IMG/VR virus record: IMGVR_UViG_3300046373_000086 | Coordinates: 1-42,896 of that record | Source of the DNA: a virus | DNA: 42,896 bases | Direction: 5' to 3' (one strand) | Shown here: one piece after another, positions 7,232-26,300 of the stretch | Position numbering within the stretch: position 1 is the stretch's first letter | How the letters are laid out: each line of letters opens with the position of its first letter | Position numbers and translations under genes: made by a program | The notes under the pieces: generated by a model | Told to the model about the DNA's origin: nothing | Seen by the model: the letters and a program-made list of their open reading frames with translations, nothing else | Databases searched by the model: none

Positions 7232-7857
7232 AAATATTAGAGCTATTCGCCGGTGCAAGATGTATAGGCCGAGCAGCAGAGCAATTGGGGCATGAGGTGT
7301 TTAGCGTAGACTGGACGGCTTATGACGGCATAGATCTGCAAATGGACATATTAAACCTTACACTTGATATGTTGCCATGGATACCAGACCACGTACATGC
7401 CTCATTCGATTGCACAACTTACACCATAGCAGCGATTAGCCACCATCGTAATGGAACAGAACCTAAAAGCGATTATGCTAAACAATGTGATAAGACTAAT
7501 ATGAAGGTTTTAGAACTTATACAGCAATCAGGGGCAACATATTCTATAGAGAATCCACGGGGTATGTTACGTAAAATGCCGTTCATGCAACACCTACCAA
7601 GATACACCGTTTGGTATTGCCAGTACGGTGATGATAGGGCAAAGCCAACTGATATATGGACAAATCTTAACTGGACACCTAAACCCGTTTGCCATAATGG
7701 TAATACAAAGTGCCATCATCAACCCGCCCCAAGAGGCTCAGCAACAGGTACTCAAGGACGTAAAAATGCACATCACCGTAGTATGATGCCTGAACAACTA
7801 TGTTTAGAATTAATGGTCTGTCTTGGGGCTATAAAAGAGCCGATAACTTTATTTTAA
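7228..7857 (+). CDS. Divergent cytosine-C5 methyltransferase-like protein, copy 1
   Basis: Numbered from the ATG at 7228, the 209-residue product opens with the SAM-binding motif LELFAGARCIGRA (residues 4-16), then SVDW at the end of strand 2. The position of the catalytic loop reads SFDCTTYT: Cys62 is present but the usual Pro of Pro-Cys is Asp61. IENPRG (107-112) takes the place of the Glu-Asn-Val motif. It is short for a C5 methyltransferase and lacks a clear target-recognition domain, though it has a Cys/His-rich stretch near 155-165. Phage proteins of this type may modify DNA against restriction. The start is fixed by coupling to the 40-aa gene. The last 4 nt overlap the convergent holin-like gene. 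Confidence 0.68.
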   Translation: MKILELFAGARCIGRAAEQLGHEVFSVDWTAYDGIDLQMDILNLTLDMLPWIPDHVHASFDCTTYTIAAISHHRNGTEPKSDYAKQCDKTNMKVLELIQQSGATYSIENPRGMLRKMPFMQHLPRYTVWYCQYGDDRAKPTDIWTNLNWTPKPVCHNGNTKCHHQPAPRGSATGTQGRKNAHHRSMMPEQLCLELMVCLGAIKEPITLF

Positions 7858-8135
7858 ATCGCCGCCTTCACCTTCTCATTAACATTCTCAGCCTTAGCGT
7901 TGGTATCACTGGTTATAGTAGTCTTAGCAGGCTCTATTAACCAGTTTTTAAGTATATACGAAACGCCTCCGCCAATACCCATCATAAGTAAAGCCTTCCA
8001 GCTAAAGTCAACCTTGCCTGCATCAATAAGTCGCTCTACAGCCACCAAAACAGGTGTAGCGATTGCCATACCTAAACCGCGTAAAAAGTCACCACCTTGC
8101 AGTGTGAACTTCTTTGATAATGTAATATTTGCCAT
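7854..8135 (-). CDS. Holin-like membrane protein (93 aa)
   Basis: The product has two hydrophobic segments, about residues 19-36 (LRGLGMAIATPVLVAVE) and 46-64 (WKALLMMGIGGGVSYIL), separated by a short polar turn, then a charged tail with Lys and Glu. Size, two spans and charged C-terminus fit a class II holin, the protein that permeabilises the inner membrane to time lysis. It follows the endolysin gene by 2 nt on the same strand. Function is inferred from topology and place. Confidence 0.65.
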   Translation of the reverse strand: MANITLSKKFTLQGGDFLRGLGMAIATPVLVAVERLIDAGKVDFSWKALLMMGIGGGVSYILKNWLIEPAKTTITSDTNAKAENVNEKVKAAI

Positions 8136-8137
8136 AA

Positions 8138-8692
8138 TTATGCTTGTTTATAAGGAATTATACGTGAATACCAGCTTTTACGCCAAACAGCCTGTGACGG
8201 GTTATTGGCAATTATATTGTCGTAATACGCTTTTCGCTGCGCATTAAAAGCATCGTAAACTTGTTTGGCAGGTAATGAGTTTACCGCGCGTATTGTTGCC
8301 GGCCCGATCTTGCCATCATCATTTACATTTGCGGCCCTCTGTAGCCTCTTTGCAGCCGTTCCGACACCAGCGTTTACCCCGAAGTCGTAAACGTTTGTAG
8401 CCAGTTGCTGATCGTTTAAAAGTTGCAGGGTAAGCGGATACCAAAAGTTTGCTTTGTAAAATTCAGATACCAGGGTCTGAATCATTGGGCTGCTGCCAGC
8501 GTGCATGTTAATTGTTGATGCCGATGATACAAACTGCTTTTTAATAGAATCTATCAACGCCCAGCCTTTCCAGTTCGGCCAGTTATTACGGGATATGCCC
8601 ATATACGTTTCTCCGCCTTTATCCTTTGATGAATTGGCATAAGCGCCTTCGTTCTGGGCGGTGTGTTTAAATGCTAAATTGAAATCAGCCAT
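8138..8692 (-). CDS. GH108 family endolysin (lysozyme) with C-terminal peptidoglycan-binding domain
   Basis: The 184-residue product matches the GH108 N-acetylmuramidase layout. The N-terminal catalytic domain (about 1-95) has the conserved NEGAYANSSKDKGGETYMGIS stretch in two parts: Glu15 is the likely catalytic acid and GGET at 26-29 the conserved turn, with Trp-Pro-Trp nearby. The C-terminal part (about 100-180) resembles the PG_binding_3 domain, with YDFGVNAG and DGKIGPATI motifs. There is no signal peptide, so release should need a holin. It is preceded by two tiny membrane peptides and followed by a holin-like gene. Confidence 0.9.
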   Translation of the reverse strand: MADFNLAFKHTAQNEGAYANSSKDKGGETYMGISRNNWPNWKGWALIDSIKKQFVSSASTINMHAGSSPMIQTLVSEFYKANFWYPLTLQLLNDQQLATNVYDFGVNAGVGTAAKRLQRAANVNDDGKIGPATIRAVNSLPAKQVYDAFNAQRKAYYDNIIANNPSQAVWRKSWYSRIIPYKQA

Positions 8693-8777
8693 ATATCGCT
8701 AAATAAAACGCCACCAAAATAGCTAATGTTGCTATGATAGCGAGAATAATGTTTTTGTTTTTTATTTGCCAGTACAT
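8685..8777 (-). CDS. Membrane peptide of the lysis operon (30 aa)
   Basis: Starts at ATG 8777, coupled to the previous stop as TAATG, and ends at 8685, overlapping the endolysin start by 8 nt. The peptide has a basic head (YWQIKNKN) and one hydrophobic span to the C-terminus (IILAIIATLAILVAFYLAIYG in its full run). Its location right before the endolysin suggests a role in lysis, as a pinholin-like or accessory peptide. Too short for homology to be judged by eye. Confidence 0.55.
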   Translation of the reverse strand: MYWQIKNKNIILAIIATLAILVAFYLAIYG

Positions 8778-8860
8778 TACCTTTCTGTATTTACCGGTAA
8801 ACTACATACCATACAAAGCAGGAAGCATATTATAATAATGAAGTGTCCTGTTAGTGGCAT
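8777..8860 (-). CDS. Tiny lipoprotein-like peptide of the lysis operon (27 aa)
   Basis: The frame starts at ATG 8860, three bases after a TATATTTG box, and its stop forms TAATG with the next start. The peptide has a hydrophobic core (FIIIICFLLCMVCS) with two Cys in lipobox-like settings, then a polar tail. It could be a short outer-membrane lipoprotein (o-spanin-like) or only a leader. Coupling on its 3' side supports it; its small size keeps confidence modest. Confidence 0.4.
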   Translation of the reverse strand: MPLTGHFIIIICFLLCMVCSLPVNTER

Positions 8861-8863
8861 AAT

Positions 8864-8871
8864 CAAATATA
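8864..8871 (-). promoter_or_regulatory. TATATTTG box at the start of the lysis operon
   Basis: On the minus strand TATATTTG matches the -7 consensus and lies 3 nt before the ATG at 8860, after the terminator at 8885-8915. No TTTG is found at the usual -33 distance. If it is the -7 box, the mRNA would be leaderless or start inside the first gene. The same box-to-ATG spacing is seen before four other minus-strand operons. Confidence 0.4.
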
Positions 8872-8884
8872 CAAAATAGTTTAA

Positions 8885-8915
8885 ATAAAAAAGCCCCGTA
8901 TGCAAGTACAGGGCT
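8885..8915 (-). terminator. Rho-independent terminator, leftward
   Basis: On the minus strand AGCCC (8915-8911) pairs with GGGCT (8896-8892) and is followed by a six-T run. No minus-strand gene lies between it and the plus-strand start at 9131, so it may end a noncoding leftward RNA or insulate the lysis operon from transcription out of the intergenic region. Confidence 0.55.
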
Positions 8916-9130: not shown

Positions 9131-9880
9131 ATGAAAACCTACGGTATACTAATCGACCTTTTCGATCACAGCGGACACGCCAATGAAGAATACAAACGTA
9201 ACAACTGGCATGTGTTCCAAGTAGATATTAAAAACGGGATTGACATTTTAGAATGGGATTATAAAGAGGCAATATTTGACTGGATGTCAACGTGTAGATA
9301 TAGCGAACCAAACTGCGAGTTTGTGTTTGGGATATTAGCTGCGGTACCTTGTACAGAATATGCGACTTCGGGAGCAAGGCATTTTGCACGAAAAGATGCT
9401 GACGGAACAACAGAAAAAAGCCAGTTACTTGTTGATAAAACTAAAGAGATTATTGATTGGGTTGATAGTCGGTTTAATCTGCTGTTTTGGAAAGTTGAAA
9501 ATCCAAGAAGTAGAATACACACTTTAAACCCATGGTTAGGTAAAATAAGGTTTAAGTTTAACCCCTGTGATTTTGCGGGGTATACCAATATTATTTATGA
9601 TTTAGATAATATGGATCAACTGGCTTGGTTAAAAAATCAAGATATTAGCAAGGTTGATAAACACTACATAAAGTTGGTTATTGACTGCAATACCTACAAC
9701 AAAGAAACGTGGTTATGGGGTAAATTTAACATACCTAAAAAAGATAGGTTTGATCCGACATGGAAAGATAGCCCAATGTTTATTCTTTATGGTGGAAAAT
9801 CTGAACGCACTAAAGAGTTAAGAAGTATAGATCCTAAAGGATTTTGTAAGGCGTTTTATGAAGCAAATAATATAGAATAA
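9131..9880 (+). CDS. Divergent cytosine-C5 methyltransferase-like protein, copy 2
   Basis: The 249-residue product has the motif order of C5-methyltransferases in weakened form. The SAM-binding start reads IDLFDHSGHAN (8-18), VDI ends the second strand, and the catalytic loop keeps Pro73-Cys74 in AVPCTEYATSG. VENPRSR (122-128) stands for the Glu-Asn-Val motif, and an ETWLWGKF segment near 200 resembles the conserved part after the target-recognition region. It shares its layout with the copy at 7228-7857 but the two are not close paralogs. It is the first gene of island B, under P3 and a leader hairpin. Activity is plausible, since the catalytic Cys and the Glu are both present. Confidence 0.7.
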   Translation: MKTYGILIDLFDHSGHANEEYKRNNWHVFQVDIKNGIDILEWDYKEAIFDWMSTCRYSEPNCEFVFGILAAVPCTEYATSGARHFARKDADGTTEKSQLLVDKTKEIIDWVDSRFNLLFWKVENPRSRIHTLNPWLGKIRFKFNPCDFAGYTNIIYDLDNMDQLAWLKNQDISKVDKHYIKLVIDCNTYNKETWLWGKFNIPKKDRFDPTWKDSPMFILYGGKSERTKELRSIDPKGFCKAFYEANNIE

Positions 9881-9881
9881 T

Positions 9882-10199
9882 ATGAGAACATTTAAGGAAC
9901 TATTTGAGAAAAGTTACGGGGAAGATTCATTCAATGAAGATTTCTTGATTGACGCTATTTCGGCCAATGGAATACATGAAAGTTGGAAAGCCAAGGTCAT
10001 TGACGAAATCGAACCGCTATGTATAAATAATGAAGGAGCGCATCTTTTAACTTCCATAATAGCATTATTAGACGGGTATAAATTAACTGTCTATCAGGCA
10101 AAACACGACTTAGGATATTGGTATAACTTGAAAGACCAAGCCGAATACGATGGTTTAGAGGAATTAGGTACTTATCAGTTAAGAATATTACAAACATAA
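9882..10199 (+). CDS. Hypothetical acidic protein (105 aa)
   Basis: Begins one base after the methyltransferase stop and ends inside the left arm of a strong bidirectional terminator. The sequence is acidic and mostly helical, with a FKELFEKSYGEDSF head, a central LLTSIIALLDGYKL helix and a Tyr-rich tail. No motif recognised. Its fixed link to the methyltransferase gene suggests a joint function. Confidence 0.6.
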   Translation: MRTFKELFEKSYGEDSFNEDFLIDAISANGIHESWKAKVIDEIEPLCINNEGAHLLTSIIALLDGYKLTVYQAKHDLGYWYNLKDQAEYDGLEELGTYQLRILQT

Positions 10200-10244
10200 A
10201 CAAAAAGCCCCGTTTCAGCATCACGCTGGCGGGGCTTTTTGTTT
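10198..10244. terminator. Strong bidirectional terminator
   Basis: AAACAAAAAGCCCCG (10198-10212) and CGGGGCTTTTTGTTT (10230-10244) form a perfect 15-bp stem with a 17-nt loop. A-runs and T-runs flank the GC core, so it works in both directions. It separates island B (plus) from the fibre/receiver operon (minus), whose stop codons lie at its two edges. Confidence 0.92.
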
Positions 10245-10476
10245 ATTTCTTATCTCTTGCATATTCCCGCATCCTATCCAGTTCCCGCTCAAGAGCCTGC
10301 ATCTTTTCGGATTGTACCCGGTTAGAGTATTCGCCTATTTTTGCGTCCATCATGTGTTCAATATTTTCCATAAGCTTAGCAGATCTTTTTTCTGACCTGT
10401 TCTCTATCCATGCAAAAAACCCACCTAATGTGGTAAGGATAGTTACACCAAAGCCTACAATCTCGTTAGTTCCCAT
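10243..10476 (-). CDS. Small membrane protein with charged coiled-coil tail (77 aa)
   Basis: Residues 4-23 are one membrane span (EIVGFGVTILTTLGGFFAWI); residues 25-77 are a long charged helix rich in Arg, Lys and Glu with heptad spacing. The layout resembles XhlA-type or Rz-type accessory lysis proteins, or a small transducer. It overlaps the receiver-domain gene by 11 nt, implying coupled translation, and is the last gene before the terminator. Function unknown. Confidence 0.62.
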   Translation of the reverse strand: MGTNEIVGFGVTILTTLGGFFAWIENRSEKRSAKLMENIEHMMDAKIGEYSNRVQSEKMQALERELDRMREYARDKK

Positions 10477-10879
10477 TTAGAGCCTCCTTCATTTCAGCAC
10501 GGGAACGCAACCTGCCGCTAAGCCCCTCAACAGCAGTACCCAAATATTCCAGCCATGTTGAACTTTTCTCTACTGTATCACTAACCCTTAGTCGTATCAG
10601 CTGTCTCAATAAAGGCACATCTAAGTACGCAGAAACGATTATTATGTAACAGTTAGGGGAAACATCATAAATGCGCTGTATTCGCTCTATAACGTCCGTT
10701 CCGTCTTTTAAACGAACGTCCATTATAACTAAATCTACAGACGAATTAAAGGCAGAGAAAAAATCTTGAGAGTTACTGAAAGAGATTACATTATACCCTA
10801 TTGATAATTGTTCGCTGATAAGATCACGCCATATCTGCTCATCATCCAGTACATTTATGAGTATTTTAATGGGTGTCAT
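10466..10879 (-). CDS. Stand-alone CheY-like response-regulator receiver domain
   Basis: The 137-residue product has a complete receiver active site: Asp12-Asp13-Glu14 after the first strand, phospho-acceptor Asp54 in VIMDVRLKDG, Ser83 at the end of strand 4 (IIIVSAY), and Lys105 after strand 5 (TVEKSS). The five alternating strands and helices can be followed by eye. There is no DNA-binding or enzymatic output domain; the last 18 residues are basic. Receivers signal by phosphorylation from a histidine kinase, and none is coded here, so a host kinase or acetyl phosphate would be the donor. It overlaps the 100-aa membrane gene upstream (ATGA) and the 77-aa one downstream. A receiver in a tail-fibre operon is unusual for a phage. 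Confidence 0.85.
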   Translation of the reverse strand: MTPIKILINVLDDEQIWRDLISEQLSIGYNVISFSNSQDFFSAFNSSVDLVIMDVRLKDGTDVIERIQRIYDVSPNCYIIIVSAYLDVPLLRQLIRLRVSDTVEKSSTWLEYLGTAVEGLSGRLRSRAEMKEALNGN

Positions 10880-11178
10880 GGCTTGCGAAGCTCGGCATAT
10901 ATTTTAAGTACGGTATCATTAAAGTGCTTCATATCACTTTCTCTAAAGTGTTTAAGCTCAATAACATCGTTTTTAATCTCATTAAGAGAACTCTCCATGG
11001 CCTCTCGAACTACAGTCTTTATAAATGTCTCCTTTTCTGTTTTCTTATCGGCAAAATACTTATCGATGTATTTCCAAAAAGCTATTATAAATGCCAGGCA
11101 GCCTGAAATCCATTTTATAACAGATTCCCAGTCTATATCGTTGTGGGGTATAGGTAAATTTGCCAATCTTTTATCCAT
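10876..11178 (-). CDS. Small membrane protein with long amphipathic tail (100 aa)
   Basis: A polar head of about 18 residues (LANLPIPHNDIDWES) is followed by one membrane span around residues 20-38 (VIKWISGCLAFIIAFWKYI) and a long charged helix to the end (about 45-98). This matches the plan of the 77-aa protein two genes on, with the receiver gene between them. Its stop overlaps the receiver start as ATGA. Either could be a holin-like or signalling membrane partner. Confidence 0.62.
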   Translation of the reverse strand: MDKRLANLPIPHNDIDWESVIKWISGCLAFIIAFWKYIDKYFADKKTEKETFIKTVVREAMESSLNEIKNDVIELKHFRESDMKHFNDTVLKIYAELRKP

Positions 11179-11207: not shown

Positions 11208-11585
11208 TTATAATTCATCTTTGAAATAGTCATGTTGTAATCCAGAGTTTAATATAAACAGACTAGTTAATGCAACGGCAAATAAATATATAAACATGAG
11301 GTATACCCCATCACACAAATTAAATATAGTAAAAGCGCTTAATGTGAAATTACAAATAAATATGCATTTATTAACGGTATTGAATTGAAGTTGTTTAAAG
11401 TCCCTTACCCCATCCCATTCATCTATAATTAGATATATCCATATCAGGGACATAAATAAGTATACGCAACCTTTCACATAAGTAGGAGGATAGCCGCTAT
11501 AATACAGCATAAACAAATAAAATGAAAAACCAACGGCGTGCAAAATAGCGGCTATAAGATTTATCATAGAGGGTTTTTTACGCAT
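11208..11585 (-). CDS. Polytopic membrane protein (125 aa)
   Basis: Four hydrophobic segments of span length can be seen at about residues 7-28, 38-55, 72-90 and 95-113, with basic residues at the very start (MRKK). Acidic and basic turns lie between them (DEWDGVRDF). It could be a superinfection-exclusion, holin or sensor-like membrane protein; no family recognised. Its start overlaps the end of the 180-aa gene upstream by 22 nt. Confidence 0.6.
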   Translation of the reverse strand: MRKKPSMINLIAAILHAVGFSFYLFMLYYSGYPPTYVKGCVYLFMSLIWIYLIIDEWDGVRDFKQLQFNTVNKCIFICNFTLSAFTIFNLCDGVYLMFIYLFAVALTSLFILNSGLQHDYFKDEL

Positions 11586-12108: not shown

Positions 12109-12573
12109 TTATAAAGTTGTTTCGTCTACTGAAATAGATGTACCAAACGTACTTGTCCCGCTGGACACAAATTTATAATAGTACCCAGGAGGTATATCTA
12201 CAACAAGTTCTGTTGTTTGGGCTTGGATTGTGTTTAATCCAATAGTCAGGCCACCTGTATTATTATTTGTAGCGGTTTGCTTTGTAGTGTAAGTAATGCC
12301 ATCTGGTGATGTTTGTAATGATATTGACCCCGATTGGCCTCCAGACAATGTTAATGAAGACGTAATAGATACCGATCCTTTAATGGACATAAAGCGGGTG
12401 ATGTTAGGCTGATAAGCAGTTCCTAAAGACCTTGTAAAGGTTTGTATTGTTATAGGCTTATATTCAAATTTAGCGAAGCAAAATCCGTATATAGTGCCAA
12501 GTAATACCATGCCTATAAAAGCAGATACCACAATTGTTTTATCCTTTTTTGAAGGGTTTAATTGTTTATCCAT
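12109..12573 (-). CDS. Membrane-anchored beta-rich protein, fibre-like (154 aa)
   Basis: Residues 1-13 are basic, 14-34 form a membrane anchor or uncleaved signal (TIVVSAFIGMVLLGTIYGFCF), and the rest is a Ser/Thr/Gly-rich beta domain with SLTLSGGQSGSISLQTSPDG, an Asn-rich loop and a VVDIPPGYYYKF strand. Such repeats of short strands are typical of fibre and adhesin heads. It overlaps the 191-aa gene by 16 nt. With its neighbours it makes a run of three products with export signals, which is not expected of virion parts assembled in the cytoplasm. Confidence 0.6.
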   Translation of the reverse strand: MDKQLNPSKKDKTIVVSAFIGMVLLGTIYGFCFAKFEYKPITIQTFTRSLGTAYQPNITRFMSIKGSVSITSSLTLSGGQSGSISLQTSPDGITYTTKQTATNNNTGGLTIGLNTIQAQTTELVVDIPPGYYYKFVSSGTSTFGTSISVDETTL

Positions 12574-13133
12574 GTCGTTCCTGTTGAAATAAGTGTGCGT
12601 GATTGATTTTGAGTACCGAGTGTGTTATTACCGCTTACGCCTGATAGCGTTACTACATTGGCAGTTGCATCTGTTTTAACTACGTAAATGGTATATCCCG
12701 CAAATGTAACCGCCGATGGCAATGTTTGAGTATTATTACCGCTGGTAGCATCAACGCTTAATATTAATGATGCTGCCTTACCAGCACCAAAATCACCAGA
12801 CGCAATAGTATAGTTTGCCGTTTTGCTTAATGTATTCATGGGTGCAACTGCCGATGATACCGTCCACGATCTGTTTGTACTCAGATCCTGAGTGGTGCCG
12901 TTTATAGTCAGCGTAGTTGATTTATTAACAGCATCTGTTATACCATAACCAGTTATGGTTGTCGGAAGGTGTAACAGGTTATCAAAATAGCCGCTGATAG
13001 CTACCTGTGGTAGAAATGTCGGGCTGATCTGATTCATGAATGCGCTATCGACAAACAGCACTTTCATTTGTGGACGTTGTCCATAACAATGTATGCTGCA
13101 AATAAAACCTGCGATAAATAATAGTTTTTTCAT
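12558..13133 (-). CDS. Secreted fibre-like protein with Sec signal peptide (191 aa)
   Basis: The first 18 residues are a signal peptide (KKLLFIAGFICSIHCYG), with cleavage expected before Gln19. Bacteroidota signal peptidase I substrates favour Gln at +1. The mature part resembles tail-fibre or capping segments: ITGYGITDAVNKSTTLTING, a YTIASGDFGAGKA turn, and short beta repeats ending in a Thr-Trp. These shaft-like units occur at the tips of phage fibres. It starts one base after the 1043-aa fibre stop and overlaps the next gene by 16 nt. Confidence 0.65.
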   Translation of the reverse strand: MKKLLFIAGFICSIHCYGQRPQMKVLFVDSAFMNQISPTFLPQVAISGYFDNLLHLPTTITGYGITDAVNKSTTLTINGTTQDLSTNRSWTVSSAVAPMNTLSKTANYTIASGDFGAGKAASLILSVDATSGNNTQTLPSAVTFAGYTIYVVKTDATANVVTLSGVSGNNTLGTQNQSRTLISTGTTWINN

Positions 13134-13134
13134 A

Positions 13135-16100
13135 TCAATAACCTTCTAAAATAATGTACCCTGTTGTGGTAGCACCCGTAACCGTCACCGCCGTTGCGCT
13201 ATTCGCCGTCACAACACTCGAAGATAAACTACTCGTGCTGATAATGATTGGCGTTCTCACAAAAGCAGTGGGGAACGTATAAGATGCCGTACCGTTCAAT
13301 GCGTTCAAATATATGATAACTTTTTTAAATGATGAACCGCTGAAAGGTTCACTAAATACAGCATTCCCACTTGTACTGCCTGAAATAGTTGACTGAGCAG
13401 CCGACACATTCATCCCAGCAATTGTGTTAGTAGCATCAATTGTTTTGTTAGATATTGTTTGTGATGCATCTGTATTAACTATGGTTCTCCGCGTAGGGGT
13501 AGATGTTGTATATCGCAAATCAGTGCCATCAAATTCAATCGCACCTGCTTCCGCAGTGGTTAAGTTAACACCGGCAGTCAATTTTAAAGGTTGTGTGTTT
13601 GCTGTCGCTGTGCCTGCTGGCAACTTAAGCCAACCGCCATCTGTAGGGCTTGTGCCCAATGTCATGTGCCCATTGCCATATGTGGTTCTCTGAACCGTAG
13701 TATAATTGGTAAGCGATTCAGTTATGCCGGTTGCAGCCAATGCAGAGTTAGCATCCTTTGCCTTTGCCCTTAATTGAATACCAGTTCCTGTTGTTGCACT
13801 TGGCGACCCTTGTATTAAAATGCCGGCATTACCCGCAATGGTTGTTCTTGCGTTTATTAAAGGGGCTAATGCACCGCTTGTGCTACCGTTACTGGTCATT
13901 TCCAAAGTGCTTGTGCTGTCGGATGTCCTAAGCATTAAATGCGTTGAATTGCCTCTCCTAGCACCCAAATCAACATCAATATTACCATAGGTATAATGAT
14001 TACCAACACTATCTAATGTGGCCTGTGTTTTATAACCTTTATCAACAGCCTGATAAATGTATTTGCTGCCTGCTGCCTGTTGTAGTATTACCTTATCATT
14101 ATACCTGCTAATCACCTCCCTGGCTTCTGCAATGTGTTGATTGGGCGAATTATTTAGTGGCTTGCTTTCATAATTTCCTGTAATGGTGTTTAATATTTGT
14201 GGTGCGCTAAATGAGGTGGGGCAAGTATTTGTATTTCCGTTGCTGGTATTTATGAAGAATTGGTAAATCCAAGCCTGTTCGATGAATTGAAAACTTGCCA
14301 GTGTTGGATTTGGATTAGCGGGTGTACGCTCACCATAATTAACCATATACCGCGCAGTGTCAATCTTAATTATCGTAGGGTAGCCGTACTGGCTTTGTAG
14401 ACTGGAATAGTATGGGCGCAGGTAACTGGTAAGCCTATAGCCATTTGGGTTGCTGATTACTTCCGATAAAGCATTTGCATAAACATAGATGCTATCAGCC
14501 CCCTGCAAACCGTTTGTTCTGTTCCGAGTAGGAGCAACAACCAATAATAAGTCTTTTACACTATCGTAATAGAACCCGGGACCTGTACTAAGATTTTTAC
14601 CATATGCTAAGTTCGTGAGAGCAGGTGTCGAGAATGTTGAACCGCCATCGGTAGACACAGATTGATACCAACCACGACCCCCGATTGTACTTCTGTATAT
14701 CCCTAAAACAGTATTAGTGCCTACCGTTTGAAAATATGGCTCGACAAAAGTCTGCCCCGAATATTTTAACCCCTCGCTTGTCCAGGTCACACCGTCTGTA
14801 GTGCTTAACCACTCGCAGCTATCTCCCGAATATATAGATACGTATGTTTTTGAACCTATTTTAAATAAATCCCCATACGGTGCTGATAATGGCACTACAC
14901 TCAACAATGTTGTTACCTTAATCAAAGTACTCCATGTTTGCCCGTTATTGTCAGAGTAAACGAAGCCCATATATTTGGTATCACTGGTTACCTTGTCGGC
15001 TCCACGCAACCAAACTACCATCCTGTTACCCACTAATCCGGCTACATGATTGCGCTCATCTATACCAAGACTATCCCTTACTTTTTTAAATCCCGACCAA
15101 GTGCCACCATGGTAGGACTTACGCATGAAAATACCTTCTTTATTGAAGTTTCCTACATGTGACCCCGCACTATCTATGCGAACGAATTGAAAAACAGTGT
15201 CCGATTTTAAAACATTTCTCGCCTCGCTTGTATGGCTAATTGTACCTGTTGGGAAGTTGGCGTCTACGCATATTTGCTGGAATTTTGTTTTTATAGGTTT
15301 TTTTACATACGTGTTTGATATAGTGGCGCTATCTGGTCGTGATGTTATATCTCTAAGCCTAACTGCATCATTTAGATCCGTTGGTGTTACTGGTATCGTA
15401 ACGTGATCACCTGTTAGTTGTAGCGTTTTGGTTGAGGCTATTGTAGTTATAGATGTATTTGCGTTTATAGCAAGCGTATTGCCCACATTACCTAATACTA
15501 AATCAGTAGGTGACATGTGAAAATTGCGACCATCTGTTGCATACATATTTACGCTACCGTAATTATATACACTAAAATTACCACCTGATGGATTACCAAC
15601 TAATAAAGTTCCCACATTGCCAGTTCCATTTATTTTAAATGATGCGCTCTGAGTACTATCGGTTTGATTTATTATTGACTTATATAACCCACTATCTACG
15701 GCTCCAAATGCCAAACTATCAGCATATTTTTTTGTGATATAGCTATTAGCCGTTGGATTAAAAGATACTCCGGCAGTATCGAATTGCAATCCCTTGCCAT
15801 CATAAGTTTTAATAAACACTCCTGAGTTATTAAATTGAAGTCTGTTAAGTGCATCTGTTGGGTTGCCATCTGGTCTGTGCAGCAGCGTTAAATTAGTTCC
15901 ACCACCAGACCCATTACCCTGTACTAAGGCATAACCGGCTGTAAAAGGATCTAAATATAATGAGTAAAAACCAGATGGCGTATATCCTCCCTGTACGTTA
16001 CCTACAGACCATGTATTGATATTCTGGAACTGGTTAATACCATATATTGCCCCGTAGTACTTTGATAAGTATTTATTGGTAGGCATAAAATAGTACTTAT

Positions 16101-16266
16101 TGTTAATAAATGCCTGTGGTATTAAATCACCGCCAAAATATGAATATCGCCATTGAGGTGTTACGCTTGTACTCGGTGTTATTAATGTTGTGTCCTTCAC
16201 GGCAGGCAGTTGCGCAAATGCCGATATGGGTAGGATTAGGTATAGAAAAAGTATGAGTTTCTTCAT
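13135..16266 (-). CDS. Large fibre-like protein with signal peptide and sialidase Asp-box domain (1043 aa)
   Basis: Residues 1-18 are a clear Sec signal peptide ([16 protein letters not shown]) with cleavage before Gln19. Residues 20-320 are a fibre-like shaft. About 330-700 form a beta-propeller-like domain with Asp-boxes at 438-445 (SDNNGQTW), 488-495 (STTDGVTW) and 538-545 (STDGGSTF), the mark of sialidase/BNR folds that bind or cut surface glycans. The end, about 760-1043, has fibre repeats such as [13 protein letters not shown] and a beta-sandwich tip. Known tail fibres rarely carry a signal peptide. It may be a receptor-binding fibre that is exported, or a cell-surface protein. It heads the operon that runs to 10243. 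Confidence 0.75.
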
Positions 16267-21278: not shown

Positions 21279-21313
21279 AAAAAACCGCAATATCAAATCA
21301 ATGAATATTGCGG
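21279..21313 (-). terminator. Rho-independent terminator, leftward
   Basis: CCGCAATAT (21313-21305 on the minus strand) pairs perfectly with ATATTGCGG (21293-21285), a 9-bp stem with an 11-nt loop, followed by a run of six T. It follows the 664-aa tail gene and lies 26 nt before the next ATG, so it may act as a terminator or as an attenuator in the leader of that gene. Confidence 0.85.
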
Positions 21314-21389
21314 CCTGAAAAACCTAAACCTTTGTAAGATGTGAAAACCATTCTACGCACCCGTTCGCTCGGCTCTATGAATGATAAAT

Positions 21390-21421
21390 CAAATATACAA
21401 ACTTACCTCACTAATTCCAAA
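21390..21421 (-). promoter_or_regulatory. Leftward promoter candidate inside the end of the 664-aa gene
   Basis: TTTG (21421-21418), a 20-nt spacer and TATATTTG (21397-21390) form a full match to the Bacteroidota consensus, like PL. Its transcript would run into the terminator at 21313-21279 before reaching the ATG at 21253, a layout typical of attenuation. Chance matches are possible in AT-rich DNA. Confidence 0.45.
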
Positions 21422-23397
21422 AGATTATTATCAACCGTCAATAAACATTTAAAATCTCGTTCGCTATTCATGGCTAAATCAATCGATGCGTTAATAAAAA
21501 ACCCCTTTAAGTTAACTCCAACGTAACTAAAAAGCCCATATCCGTATACCCCATTATTAACATACTGCCAAAAATCTTGCGGTAAACGGGTTGTAAATGA
21601 TGCGTAGTGTGGCTGAAAATAAGGCGGTGCTAATTCTGCAACATTAACATTGCTATTCTCAACTACAACAGACCCGTTATATACTGTACTAACTGCTGTA
21701 TTCTTTTCACCGCTCACAAATCTGATTTGGTATGCATCATTTCCATAAAATACTGAATGAATATAAGACCCCCAACGCAATAAGTTTCTATGTGGGGATA
21801 TATACCAGTTATAATAAGTTTCGCCTGCCTTAACGCCTGTAATGTCGCTTGTAGTCAAAGGGCAATAATAGCCCCCAACCTGGGCAACTGGTTTAACGTA
21901 AATAAAAAAAACATCGTTATCCGCATCGTTATCGGTTGTACGTTTGCCATCTAAATTTATACGCAAAAATTCAATGCCGTATGCGTCGGCACGATAGGCA
22001 GATGTAATATCTAATTCCTTTACTGGCGCATAAGTATCTATAACGTACTGCTGAATAGCATTTATTTCATCTTTGCCGTTAACCTCGTCATAAGTTTGTG
22101 TCTCATACCCTGCTTTAATCGAATTAAACATCAGATCTAAGGCGGGTTCAATAGAAACATCTTTGCTATCTAACATTGATAATGTTTGACTATTTCGGTA
22201 ATATGATTGTCTATATTCTAAAGTTGCCGCTCCAATTTCCACCGCATGACCAGCACATGTAACTGCCGAAATTGATTTAAAGAAATCTGAAAATGTGGTT
22301 TTAATTTTAGCGCCTTCAATTTGCCTTATAGCATCGCCGCATGTTATAGTTAACTGTTCCCATTCTTTTAGCAATAACGACTGAACGGGGTATGCAAAAC
22401 CACCATTCATTTGTTTAACCAATTGCTGGAAAACATATGCAGGTCGTAAAGCCTTACACTTCGTTGCTGGTGATATAGTCTCGTATGATAGCGATAAGGT
22501 ACCTTCGGTATAATTAAACCCTGTATTGCTATCTAAAGTGCCATCTATGCGCTGATATACAAACACCTTATCCCCTACATTAATGGGTATTGTGTAAGTT
22601 TGGTTTATATCAAATGCCGGCGACCCTAACGCATGGGTTACGTCTAAAGGGGTAGCCAGCACCGTTCCATCCTGCTTTACTAACTGTATTCTGAAACGTT
22701 TTGCCGATCCAAGAAAAGTTTGGGTAGATCCTTTAACCCCATCGAAAAAAAAACTTACATCGCCAGTAGTTTGAGCGGTAAAAAACCAGTCCCCATCTGT
22801 TGCAAAATTAGGAGTTAAGGCTGTTCTATATGAGACATCCTTCACCGATTGATTAACTGATTTTACTTCGTTGTTAACGATTGACAATGCTGTGTAGCCT
22901 GGCTGCTGGTCTAACTGTGATGCAACGAATAATAAATCGGCTAATTCAATAAGTTTTAAAGGCGTTATTTCAATATCTATAGCTTCTGGGACATCTACAG
23001 GTATCTCGTACTTAACGTTCTCAAAAGCCTTTGTTTTAACCGACAAGTCAGCATCGGTAGCGTTAACTGTGAAATAATCTTCCTCGTCTTTTGCTTTGGA
23101 AAAATCAAGTTTACCATAGTACGCAATCTCATAATCCCATGTTGACGGATTTTGCTTATCTATTTGGATATAAACCTGCGCCTGTACACCGTATTGATAA
23201 TACTGTTGACGTAATATCCATGCCCCATCTAAAACGAATTTAAGCGGTATGGTTAGCGACCTTACAGCCCCGAAATAAGTTTCTGAACGGGAAAACTCCA
23301 ACGTGCTATCTTCACTCCATCCGCTTGGCGCATTGGGTAATACATAGCTATCTACAGCAGGTACAATAAGCGTATATCGAAACTCTTTAGGTTGCAT
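21403..23397 (-). CDS. Distal-tail (Dit)-like or tail-hub protein (664 aa)
   Basis: Follows the tape measure gene with TAATG coupling, the usual place for distal tail and hub proteins. The N-terminal 150 residues read like a Dit-type galectin fold: a FRYTLIVPAVDSYVLP head, GWSEDSTLEF and a strand-rich core. The middle has long stretches of strand and turn with a VNATDADLSV motif, and the C-terminal part resembles a baseplate hub. It is longer than a classical Dit. Bacteroidota phages often have such a protein annotated only as hypothetical. Role as tail tip is inferred from place and fold. Confidence 0.6.
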   Translation of the reverse strand: MQPKEFRYTLIVPAVDSYVLPNAPSGWSEDSTLEFSRSETYFGAVRSLTIPLKFVLDGAWILRQQYYQYGVQAQVYIQIDKQNPSTWDYEIAYYGKLDFSKAKDEEDYFTVNATDADLSVKTKAFENVKYEIPVDVPEAIDIEITPLKLIELADLLFVASQLDQQPGYTALSIVNNEVKSVNQSVKDVSYRTALTPNFATDGDWFFTAQTTGDVSFFFDGVKGSTQTFLGSAKRFRIQLVKQDGTVLATPLDVTHALGSPAFDINQTYTIPINVGDKVFVYQRIDGTLDSNTGFNYTEGTLSLSYETISPATKCKALRPAYVFQQLVKQMNGGFAYPVQSLLLKEWEQLTITCGDAIRQIEGAKIKTTFSDFFKSISAVTCAGHAVEIGAATLEYRQSYYRNSQTLSMLDSKDVSIEPALDLMFNSIKAGYETQTYDEVNGKDEINAIQQYVIDTYAPVKELDITSAYRADAYGIEFLRINLDGKRTTDNDADNDVFFIYVKPVAQVGGYYCPLTTSDITGVKAGETYYNWYISPHRNLLRWGSYIHSVFYGNDAYQIRFVSGEKNTAVSTVYNGSVVVENSNVNVAELAPPYFQPHYASFTTRLPQDFWQYVNNGVYGYGLFSYVGVNLKGFFINASIDLAMNSERDFKCLLTVDNNLLELVR

Positions 23398-26300
23398 TAG
23401 TTGAAGTGATTATTACGATACGTATTCCAGTTGCTTACTTGCTGCTGTTGTCTTTTCCATCCGCCTTTGGTAATAAATGTCCCTGCCATTTTTTGACCAT
23501 GTATAGCCTTTGTAGTTTTGCGCTGTTCACTAACCAACTGCTGTATATCAACTGCCTGTCCACCTACATAATTAATGCGTTCAGGCTTAGCTAACATCTT
23601 TATTACTTCGTAGTTTGGTAATACCTTTGTACCAGCTGGTGCGGTTGTTAGCGTGTCGGTATCTGGCGTTAAGTATCGCTTGCCATTTGGCTCAATTACT
23701 AACTCTGTACCTGCATCACCTACTATCATTGCACCGCCTTTGTGATAGTCTGTGCCTTTGGCGTATTTGGGGATGGGGGTTGCGATAACGGTTGCCAATT
23801 GTAATGCGCCTAATGCACCTATAGCAGCCGCAATGGCCGGGTATAATGGTGCTGTAAAAGGGTTGGATAGGTAACTCAATGCCTGTACCTCAGCTATACC
23901 TACAGCCTCAACAATTTTAGCAATTGATATTAATTTATCAAACTTGGCCTGTCTTGTTTTTACTTCACGTTCTTTTTGAGCGATAACATCCTGTTGCGCC
24001 TGAGTTTTTGCATCAATGATATTTTTTTTGTTAGCCTTTTCTTCATCTGTAGCCAAAGACCTATCAACAACTTCTTTCTCTTTATCTGAATTTTTAGTTA
24101 ATTGATCTGATTGTACGGATAGCGCATCCAGTTGCTTTTGATAGCTGCCATCTACCAATGTTTGTATTAATTCGATACTTTGGTCGGCTATCTGTTTTTC
24201 GAGGTCATGAAGAGATTTTCTTGCTGATTCTACTTTTTTAATATTGTCTAATTCTACTTGCGTTGCTAAATTAGAACCATCAATTCTTAACTTAGTTATT
24301 AAGTTCTGCGTTCTTTGAACTTCTTTCGGATCGCCTATCCCGAATTCAAGATTAGATTGTTGAGTTTCTAATATTTTCTCAAGTGTTTGTATTTGTAAAT
24401 CAATCCTGTCCTTTGAGGCCTGTTTTTCTATATCGTAAACTTGCTGGTTGTATTCGGCTGTTGATATTTTACCCGTTCTATACAGGTCGGCTGTTGCGCT
24501 AAGGGCTTCGCTTTGGTACTTCTCAATTTCTAATAATTTGGTGTCCTGCGCATCTCTTAAGTCTATTATCTCTTGTTGTAAAACGGTATTTGCGTTTTTC
24601 GCCCCTTCATTTAGTATTTTCGCAAGTTCCGTCTCTGCCTGTTTTTTTATTTCATTTGTTTTAGTCAATCCCTCTTTGTCAATATCGGCTAAGTCCCCTT
24701 GTAATTTCGATTCCACAGCCTTTCTCTTGTCTGAATTTTCACCAGCTTCAATAAGGTCGAATTTTGACCTTGTTTGTACCAACTCTTTTGAGGTATCTAC
24801 ATATTTTTTTACAGCGGCTAATCTATCATCGTATGAATTATTAGCATCTGCTATAAAGGCTTGCTCTTGTTTTTTAGAAGTCTCCAACTCTTGTTGCTTT
24901 AAGGCAGCCCTGTCCCTATTTGCTGATACTATCAAATCACGAGACTGCTTATTAAATTCAATGGTTGTTTTTAATATTTCAGCATTTTTTTTGTCGTTTA
25001 TAGCCTGTTCCTGGTCTGCTTGTATACCAGGAACATCCAATTCTTTTATAGCATTATTTTTTATAATCTGAAGTCTATCTGATAAGGCTTTTTTTAATGA
25101 AGACTGCCTTTCTGAATAAGATTTTTTATCATTGTTGGCAATGTCCATATTCCTATCGGCATCTGCTTGCAATAAGCTATTATTGTAATCTATAGCTTCT
25201 GATGTCTTTCGCCTTTGTATGTCTGACGAGTCAACGCTTACAAAGTTTTTAGCAAATTGATTAGCCAATGTTAATAACTTATCATACGTAGATGTTGTTT
25301 GATTAACCAACTTATCTTGATTATCTTTTGCGTTCTTTACTGATTTTTGATCCACCCTATTTGCATTTTCTGCAATTTTCAGCAATCCCTTATATGACTC
25401 GGCATTTGACCCGCCTTTTGCTATCTCATCCCTTATTTGCTTTAGGTCTTTTGCGGTAAGGGTGGCATTTGCCTCTTCTGTCATTAGTTTTTTAGTAGCT
25501 TTAACTAAATCGTCAGTACCCTGCGATAGTGCAGCTGCAGCTGCAGCTTTAAAAAACATTGATTTTATATAATCTCGCGAGTTGTTTTTTAACTGTTGCT
25601 CAACCTGATCTAATGTTTGAACTTGACCCACTGTTTTACCAATAGTATCGTTATACTTTTTAACTACAGTCTCGCTATCTATAAAGCCTTCTTTTGCAAG
25701 TTTTATTTGCTCTTTTAAGTCTATAACACTTGATATTGATTCCTTAAACAAGGTATTATCAAATGCTGCCATTAACGCCTTTCTTTTTGAGTCAAAATCA
25801 GATAGCGAAGTATTGAGTACACCTAACTCAGTTACAACATATTTTATACCTTCAAACAAGGCTAAGAATATACCACTTATCCCTAATCCAGGTAGTATAT
25901 TTGCTGCGGTTCTTATAGCACCGTAAGCAGTTGAAAAAACTCCAGCAATCCCCTTTGCATAATTCCCTACATTCCTTTGGAAGTTGCCCAAAGGCTGGTC
26001 AATGCTATCTAATTGAGCCCTTAACCTATTGGCATCAGCTGCTGCAATTTTAAATTGAAGTGAACGTGTACCGAATACAACTCCAGCCTCTCTTGCTGCG
26101 GCAGTAGCTGCGTTATATTCTGCTGTTAACTTTTGATACTCTGTTTTAGCTTTGTTTGCAGTAGCTGTTTGCCTATTTAATTGCTCCTCCTCTCGCCTAC
26201 GAGCGGCCGTAAGCCTAATTTGAGCCTGTTCATTTAATGCGGTAGACCTTGCAAGATCTTGCTGTGCTTTTGCAGTTTGAGCCTGTAGCCTGTTTAGCTT

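What the first reader, a model, noticed from the sequence alone, without database searches (positions are those of the whole stretch)
10243..11178. Phage-encoded stand-alone receiver domain locked between two small membrane proteins
The 137-aa gene at 10466-10879 carries every receiver active-site residue (Asp12/13, Asp54, Ser83, Lys105) with no output domain and no kinase anywhere in the genome. It overlaps by ATGA a 100-aa protein with one membrane span and a long charged helix, and by 11 nt a 77-aa protein of the same plan. The three are therefore coupled in translation. This looks like a minimal membrane-linked signalling unit that could tap a host histidine kinase to time lysis, gate superinfection, or alter surface traits. 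Receiver domains in phages are rare, and this arrangement I do not know.
Basis: partly seen in the sequence, partly recalled or inferred. Interest (0 to 1): 0.78.

Follow-up and report, generated by a model that had tools for sequence, protein, structure and literature searches.

The report
Phage receiver domain among membrane proteins
A bacterial virus carries a lone signal-receiver protein of the kind that bacterial sensor kinases phosphorylate, translated together with small membrane proteins of a type that sets when viruses burst their host, and two other viruses keep the same gene order, so it may let a virus read its host's signalling state.

Summary
The 137-aa gene is a true receiver: Pfam Response_reg is above cut-off, the predicted fold is (βα)5 at pLDDT 87, and both acidic residues, Asp54, Ser83 and Lys105 are present. 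It overlaps a one-span protein on each side, and the terminally repeated 42.9-kb genome has no HATPase kinase domain.

The order four-span / one-span / receiver / one-span recurs in two other IMG/VR phages, with 4-nt overlaps and Asp54 and Ser83 kept. Compared with phage G003, whose capsid protein is 28% identical, the receiver (66%) and the 77-aa protein (78%) are the best-conserved proteins, at saturated synonymous sites. They form the constrained core.

The one-span proteins have the N-out/C-in, charged-tail topology of LysF1b-type lysis regulators. In all three phages the unit lies just before the endolysin cassette. In the window it has its own terminator and the endolysin genes a candidate promoter, so it is not simply the lysis operon.

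Best reading, mostly inferred: a membrane-docked phospho-switch, fed by host kinases or small phosphodonors, that tunes late events, most likely lysis timing. I found no such arrangement in the held databases or papers.

The parts
10466..10879 (-). Stand-alone receiver domain, 137 aa; D12 D13 E14, D54, S83, K105; long last helix (109-135)
   Evidence: Pfam PF00072 E 1.2e-11; AlphaFold (βα)5, pLDDT 86.7; Foldseek PDB receivers; orthologues 66% and 36% identical in two phages
10243..10476 (-). 77-aa membrane protein: one span (about 6-22), N-out/C-in by the positive-inside rule, 55-aa helical tail with 47% charged residues; start overlaps the receiver stop by 11 nt
   Evidence: orthologue 78% identical in G003; its two orthologues are weakly similar to phrog_1009
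10876..11178 (-). 100-aa membrane protein of the same plan: one span (19-35), 65-aa charged tail; stop overlaps the receiver start (ATGA)
   Evidence: same place in L010 (85 aa) and L004 (97 aa), but only about 22% identical
11208..11585 (-). 125-aa protein with four predicted membrane spans, first gene of the conserved unit
   Evidence: hydropathy peaks at 10-26, 39-55, 74-90, 96-112; 28% identical to the 126-aa gene at the same place in G003
10196..10246 (.). Bidirectional intrinsic terminator that ends the unit and the convergent plus-strand genes
   Evidence: RNA fold -30.8 kcal/mol, z -8.8 against shuffles
8864..8871 (-). Bacteroidota-type -7 element TATATTTG, candidate promoter of the lysis cassette (context)
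   Evidence: the motif is common (76 in the window against 61 expected), so only suggestive
8777..8860 (-). Tiny 27-aa membrane ORF at the head of the lysis cassette (context)
   Evidence: a tiny ORF of 29-32 aa in the same place in both relatives
8685..8777 (-). Second tiny ORF, 30 aa, one span, overlapping the endolysin start (context)
   Evidence: same overlap with the endolysin start in both relatives (26 and 28 aa)
8138..8692 (-). Endolysin, Glyco_hydro_108 plus PG_binding_3 (context)
   Evidence: Pfam E 2.1e-18, PHROG endolysin E 4.4e-35
7854..8135 (-). 93-aa one-span protein after the endolysin, holin candidate (context)
   Evidence: a roughly 92-aa membrane protein follows the endolysin in both relatives

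Best explanation
The unit 11208-11585 / 10876-11178 / 10466-10879 / 10243-10476 is a late-operon, membrane-docked phospho-switch. SHOWN: a receiver with an intact phosphorylation site is translated in overlap with two one-span proteins of N-out/C-in plan, after a four-span protein, just upstream of the endolysin cassette, in three phages; the receiver and the 77-aa protein are the strongly constrained pair. INFERRED: the receiver binds the cytoplasmic helix of the 77-aa protein (and perhaps the 100-aa one) and so is held at the membrane. Phosphorylation of Asp54 by a host histidine kinase or a small phosphodonor such as acetyl phosphate changes this binding. The membrane proteins act like LysF1b-type holin-like regulators, so phosphorylation advances or delays lysis (or a related late membrane event) with host state. 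Rough likelihoods: true phosphorylatable receiver 0.95; receiver plus 77-aa protein as one functional unit 0.85; output is lysis timing 0.45.
For: Receiver identity and active site. Same four-gene order with overlaps in G002 (L004) and G003 (L010). Receiver 66% and 77-aa 78% identical to G003 while capsid protein is 28% and portal 25%, with saturated synonymous sites (pS 0.80 and 0.85) and low dN (0.27 and 0.16) against 0.85 and 0.83 for the two upstream membrane proteins: old, selected co-conservation. Topology: 3-4 basic residues just after the span, tails 37-50% charged, the published description of LysF1b (PMC13056207) and of one-span Gordonia phage proteins (PMC9671378); deletion of lysF1b alters lysis timing. 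Weak hits of the small proteins fall next to holin/endolysin genes in Arthrobacter, Mycobacterium, Streptococcus and Brochothrix phages; the G002 53-aa protein touches a PHROG holin (phrog_1350, E 0.004) and all three orthologues touch phrog_1009, the family of the Brochothrix and Streptococcus lysis-cassette proteins. The unit precedes the endolysin genes in all three phages although the endolysin family differs each time.
Against: In the window a strong terminator and about 1 kb of opposite-strand genes separate the unit from the endolysin genes, which have a promoter-like motif and their own tiny membrane proteins and holin candidate; in G003 opposite-strand genes also intervene. Similarity to lysis-cassette families is weak (E 0.004-1), possibly shared composition only. 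No binding, phosphorylation or lysis effect can be shown from sequence. Only three phages, no isolate.
Confidence: 0.45

Rival explanations
1. Host-signalling decoy: the membrane-held receiver drains phosphate from, or competes on, a host sensor kinase (for example an envelope-stress or secretion kinase), muting a host response late in infection. The membrane proteins only place it beside membrane kinases; lysis is not the target.
For: Single-domain receiver with no output domain and no own kinase; the phosphorylation-site core is the best-kept part; phages do target host two-component systems (PIT4, PMC10714779, listed).
Against: Helix 1, a usual kinase-binding surface of receivers, is only moderately kept (8/13 with G003, 2/13 with G002). 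Strong co-conservation with one particular small membrane protein and placement before the lysis genes are not needed for a decoy.
Confidence: 0.25
2. Superinfection or surface control: the unit works with the upstream exported fibre-like proteins to alter the infected cell's envelope late in infection.
For: It is the end of an apparent operon whose preceding genes have Sec-type signal peptides in all three phages, one with a BNR_2 domain.
Against: The fibre-like genes vary while the unit stays; no link beyond adjacency. Apart from the fibre gene's first 55 or so residues in G003 and one 137-residue patch in G002, the exported proteins do not match between phages.
Confidence: 0.15
3. The receiver is a phosphorylation-independent adaptor: the fold is kept as a scaffold for the 77-aa coil and phosphorylation is irrelevant, as in atypical receivers.
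For: No kinase; overlapping translation with its neighbours; a long last helix could serve as the interface.
Against: The acidic residues, Asp54 and Ser83 persist at 36% identity in G002, which a mere scaffold would not require; the beta-5 lysine is exact in two phages and one gap away in the third.
Confidence: 0.12
4. cRec-type enzyme acting on cyclic phosphates in anti-defence, as proposed for divergent receivers of jumbo phages.
For: Phage receiver-like domain without kinase; that family is described in phages (PMC7824862).
Against: Pfam calls the classical Response_reg model and no cREC model; no NAD-processing domain in the Pfam scan of the neighbours; no convincing PADLOC match.
Confidence: 0.03

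Closest known systems
Single-domain response regulators (CheY, Spo0F, DctD/FixJ receivers; PF00072)
   Same: Fold, acidic pair, phosphoacceptor Asp, Ser/Thr and, in two of three phages, Lys in place; extended last helix, with DctD receiver-plus-linker structures among the best matches
   Different: Phage-encoded, no kinase partner in the genome, translated in overlap with membrane proteins; 'NVLDDE' and 'PNCYII' hallmarks; no close cellular relative found
LysF1b and one-span holin-like proteins of actinophages (PMC13056207, PMC9671378)
   Same: Small size, one N-terminal span, N-out/C-in, 3-4 basic residues after the span, charged helical tail, ATGA overlaps, array with a multi-span protein near endolysin genes
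   Different: Host is presumably Bacteroidota (Gram-negative); no significant sequence similarity shown; a receiver gene sits inside the array; separate terminator in the window
Brochothrix/Streptococcus phage proteins of phrog_1009, encoded just upstream of holin
   Same: N-terminal NE..span..WI motif (hhalign 92% probability over 26 residues), one span plus helical tail
   Different: Match limited to the N-terminal span; no receiver gene in the cassettes looked at
cRec domains of jumbo phages (PMC7824862)
   Same: Receiver-like domain in phages without histidine kinases
   Different: No cREC profile match; the paper links cRec to NAD and cyclic-nucleotide processing, not membrane proteins

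Membership tests
Response-regulator receiver domain (PF00072) | Profile match above curated cut-off and (βα)5 fold | tested here: met
   45.2 bits against 30.2; the two relatives are also above cut-off; fold pLDDT 86.7 with receiver hits
Response-regulator receiver domain (PF00072) | Acidic pair, phosphoacceptor Asp, Ser/Thr, Lys | tested here: met
   D12 D13, D54, S83, K105 in window and G003; in G002 all but Lys are aligned as invariant, Lys needs a one-residue gap
Response-regulator receiver domain (PF00072) | Aspartyl phosphorylation | not testable with these tools
   needs biochemistry
Self-contained two-component system | Cognate histidine kinase in the same genome | tested here: not met
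   no HATPase_c in the window or the two relatives; control genomes 14/14
LysF1b-type one-span holin-like protein | Single N-terminal span, N-out/C-in, charged cytoplasmic tail | tested here: met
   hydropathy and charge counts for the 77- and 100-aa proteins and their counterparts; the span of the G002 97-aa protein is weak (0.65)
LysF1b-type one-span holin-like protein | Lies in the endolysin cassette | tested here: inconclusive
   immediately upstream of it in all three phages, but separated by a terminator and opposite-strand genes in the window
LysF1b-type one-span holin-like protein | Sequence relationship | tested here: inconclusive
   only weak repeated hits to phrog_1009 and phrog_1350; LysF1b itself was not compared
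LysF1b-type one-span holin-like protein | Loss changes lysis timing | not testable with these tools
   needs a cultured phage
Rz-type inner-membrane spanin | N-in/C-out topology with a partner lipoprotein gene nested or adjacent | tested here: not met
   charge pattern predicts C-in; no further minus-strand ORF of 40 aa or more in 10243-11178
cRec | cREC profile and NAD or cyclic-nucleotide neighbours | tested here: not met
   Pfam lists Response_reg only, besides one sub-threshold DUF

The most novel reading that the evidence does not exclude
A phage lysis timer built on two-component chemistry: a phage receiver, phosphorylated by host kinases or metabolic phosphodonors, gates an array of holin-like membrane proteins, so that lysis time is set by the host's signalling state.
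Probability: 0.33. Interest if true: 0.85.

Novelty: new variant of a known kind. Interest (0 to 1): 0.62.

Why it matters
Phages are known to read host state through repressors, small-molecule signals and antiholins such as those of T4 lysis inhibition. A receiver coupled to membrane proteins before the lysis genes would be a direct wire from host phosphosignalling to a phage membrane event. The unit is small, conserved in three otherwise divergent phages and has one obvious test residue (Asp54), so the idea is directly testable.

Tried and rejected
Relatives were sought with eight scans of IMG/VR and two of GTDB genomes (six IMG/VR and one GTDB scan with parts of the unit, the others with terminase, portal and fibre): only two IMG/VR phages carry the unit, and no genome hit survived. 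Part of this narrowness comes from the exact-peptide seeding of those scans. Two INPHARED hits to the receiver lie in ordinary bacterial response-regulator/kinase operons, probably in mis-binned contigs (Enterococcus 'phage' Efs 1-1-1, MT835670) and were dropped. Plasmid hits are ordinary response regulators such as FixJ. A histidine in the 77-aa tail (IEHMMD) looked like a phosphotransfer site but is alanine in G003, so rejected. The named phage with the nearest terminase (Porphyromonas phage005b) has holin-endolysin-spanin and no annotated receiver in the part viewed; its holin is not detectably related to the 125-aa protein. The spanin reading was rejected on topology. A PorX/T9SS link rests on a weak hit (E 0.024) and generic fold matches, so was not pursued. 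Hosts could not be assigned, because no relatives are drawn for virus records. Complex prediction of receiver plus 77-aa tail was not possible with the tool.

Full report
WHAT IS THERE. The window is a 42.9-kb tailed-phage genome with a 127-bp direct terminal repeat, so very probably complete. Its terminase is nearest, among named phages, to Porphyromonas and Bacteroides phages, so the host is presumably a member of Bacteroidota. On the minus strand, after the tail-fibre-like genes, come four genes: 125 aa (11208-11585, four predicted spans), 100 aa (10876-11178, one span), 137 aa (10466-10879) and 77 aa (10243-10476, one span). The last three overlap by 4 and 11 nt. A strong hairpin with T-runs on both strands (10196-10246, -30.8 kcal/mol, z -8.8) follows.

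THE RECEIVER IS REAL. Pfam Response_reg scores 45.2 bits against a cut-off of 30.2. PDB sequence hits are FixJ, DctD and Spo0F-type receivers. AlphaFold gives all five strands and helices at pLDDT 86.7, and Foldseek returns receivers. The last helix runs from 109 to 135, longer than usual; DctD receiver structures are among the best matches. No HATPase_c domain was found in this genome or in the two relatives, while the control rings in 14 of 14 genomes, and each phage has exactly one receiver.

RELATIVES. Two IMG/VR phages carry the unit. G002 (3300023314_000003; capsid protein 90% and terminase 80% identical to the window) has 143-aa, 97-aa, receiver (36%) and 53-aa genes with ATGA overlaps around the receiver. 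G003 (3300023094_000018; capsid 28%, portal 25%) has 126-aa, 85-aa, receiver (66%) and 77-aa (78%) genes with GTGA overlaps. Window-G003 synonymous differences are saturated (pS 0.80 and 0.85) while dN is 0.27 for the receiver and 0.16 for the 77-aa gene, against 0.85 and 0.83 for the 100- and 125-aa genes. So the likeness is not a recent transfer but long purifying selection on the receiver and its downstream partner. The acidic triad DDE, Asp54 and Ser83 are invariant in all three. The beta-5 lysine is exact in two and matched in G002 with one gap. The active-site strands and loops are the best-kept segments; helix 2 and the end of the last helix vary.

THE SMALL MEMBRANE PROTEINS. Each has one hydrophobic span near the N-terminus, 3-4 basic residues just after it, and a tail with 37-50% charged residues. 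The 77-aa protein is predicted as one long helix (moderate confidence). By the positive-inside rule the tails are cytoplasmic, where the receiver is. This is the published description of LysF1b (one N-terminal TMD, N-out-C-in, basic residues after the span, charged helical tail, ATGA overlap), whose deletion changes lysis timing in F1 mycobacteriophages (PMC13056207), and of one-span proteins that in Gordonia phages always occur in arrays with other membrane proteins (PMC9671378). Sequence links are weak but point the same way. All three 77-aa orthologues and the G003 85-aa protein touch phrog_1009 (E 0.006-0.08). That is the family of Brochothrix and Streptococcus proteins encoded just upstream of holin or cell-wall hydrolase genes. 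Four of seven distinct weak tblastn hits lie in lysis cassettes (others), which has p about 0.003-0.01 if 10-15% of small genes did so (a rough estimate with an assumed base rate).

PLACE IN THE GENOME. Downstream lies the endolysin cassette. In the window it is 8860-7854: two tiny overlapping membrane ORFs, GH108 endolysin, 93-aa membrane protein. The same layout, two tiny ORFs, endolysin, and a roughly 92-aa membrane protein, occurs in G002 and G003 with different endolysin families (PF11860 muramidase, M15 peptidase). In the window the cassette has a Bacteroidota-type -7 motif of its own (8864-8871) after a hairpin, and the receiver unit has its own terminator. Hence the receiver unit is adjacent to, not part of, the lysis transcription unit in the window; in G002 the two are contiguous with a TACCTTTG motif between.

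MECHANISM. Shown: intact receiver, overlapping translation, conserved order, co-constrained receiver and 77-aa pair, cytoplasm-facing helical partners by prediction. Inferred: docking of the receiver on the 77-aa helix; phosphorylation by a host kinase or small phosphodonor; effect on lysis timing. I give lysis timing 0.45, host-signalling decoy 0.25, surface or superinfection role 0.15, phosphorylation-independent scaffold 0.12 and a cRec-like enzyme 0.03.

NOVELTY. Phage receivers exist (BFVD entries annotated as CheY-like or response regulator; cRec, PMC7824862), and one-span holin-like proteins exist. A receiver embedded in such an array was not found in the held literature or databases. 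Papers in subscription journals were mostly not searchable. I file it as a new variant combining two known kinds.

Noticed in passing
window 8685-8860 (-), L010 8129-8304 (+), L004 2117-2289 (+): Two tiny overlapping ORFs (27+30, 32+26, 29+28 aa; in the window and G002 both look hydrophobic enough for one span) run straight into the endolysin start in all three phages: candidate miniature holin or lysis-regulator pair that a gene caller would miss.
   Followed up: partly
window 12558-16266 (-); L010 2002-5156 (+); G002 21297-25833 (+): Fibre-like genes start with Sec-type signal peptides (ending AFAQ, AIGQ, NAQ and similar) in all three phages, odd for virion proteins; the window's 1043-aa protein has a BNR_2 (sialidase-like) domain. 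They may be exported into the host envelope.
   Followed up: partly
window 9131-10199 (+) and the same place in L010 (6639-8054, -): A variable island of opposite-strand genes sits between the receiver unit and the lysis cassette (methyltransferase-like phrog_757 in the window); it is absent in G002.
   Followed up: no
window 8892-8915 (-): A G+C-rich hairpin with T-tail lies just upstream of the candidate lysis promoter, possibly a second insulator or attenuator.
   Followed up: no
MT835670.1, OR846663.1: Two records labelled phage in GenBank carry ordinary bacterial kinase/response-regulator operons around the receiver match and look like mis-binned host contigs.
   Followed up: partly
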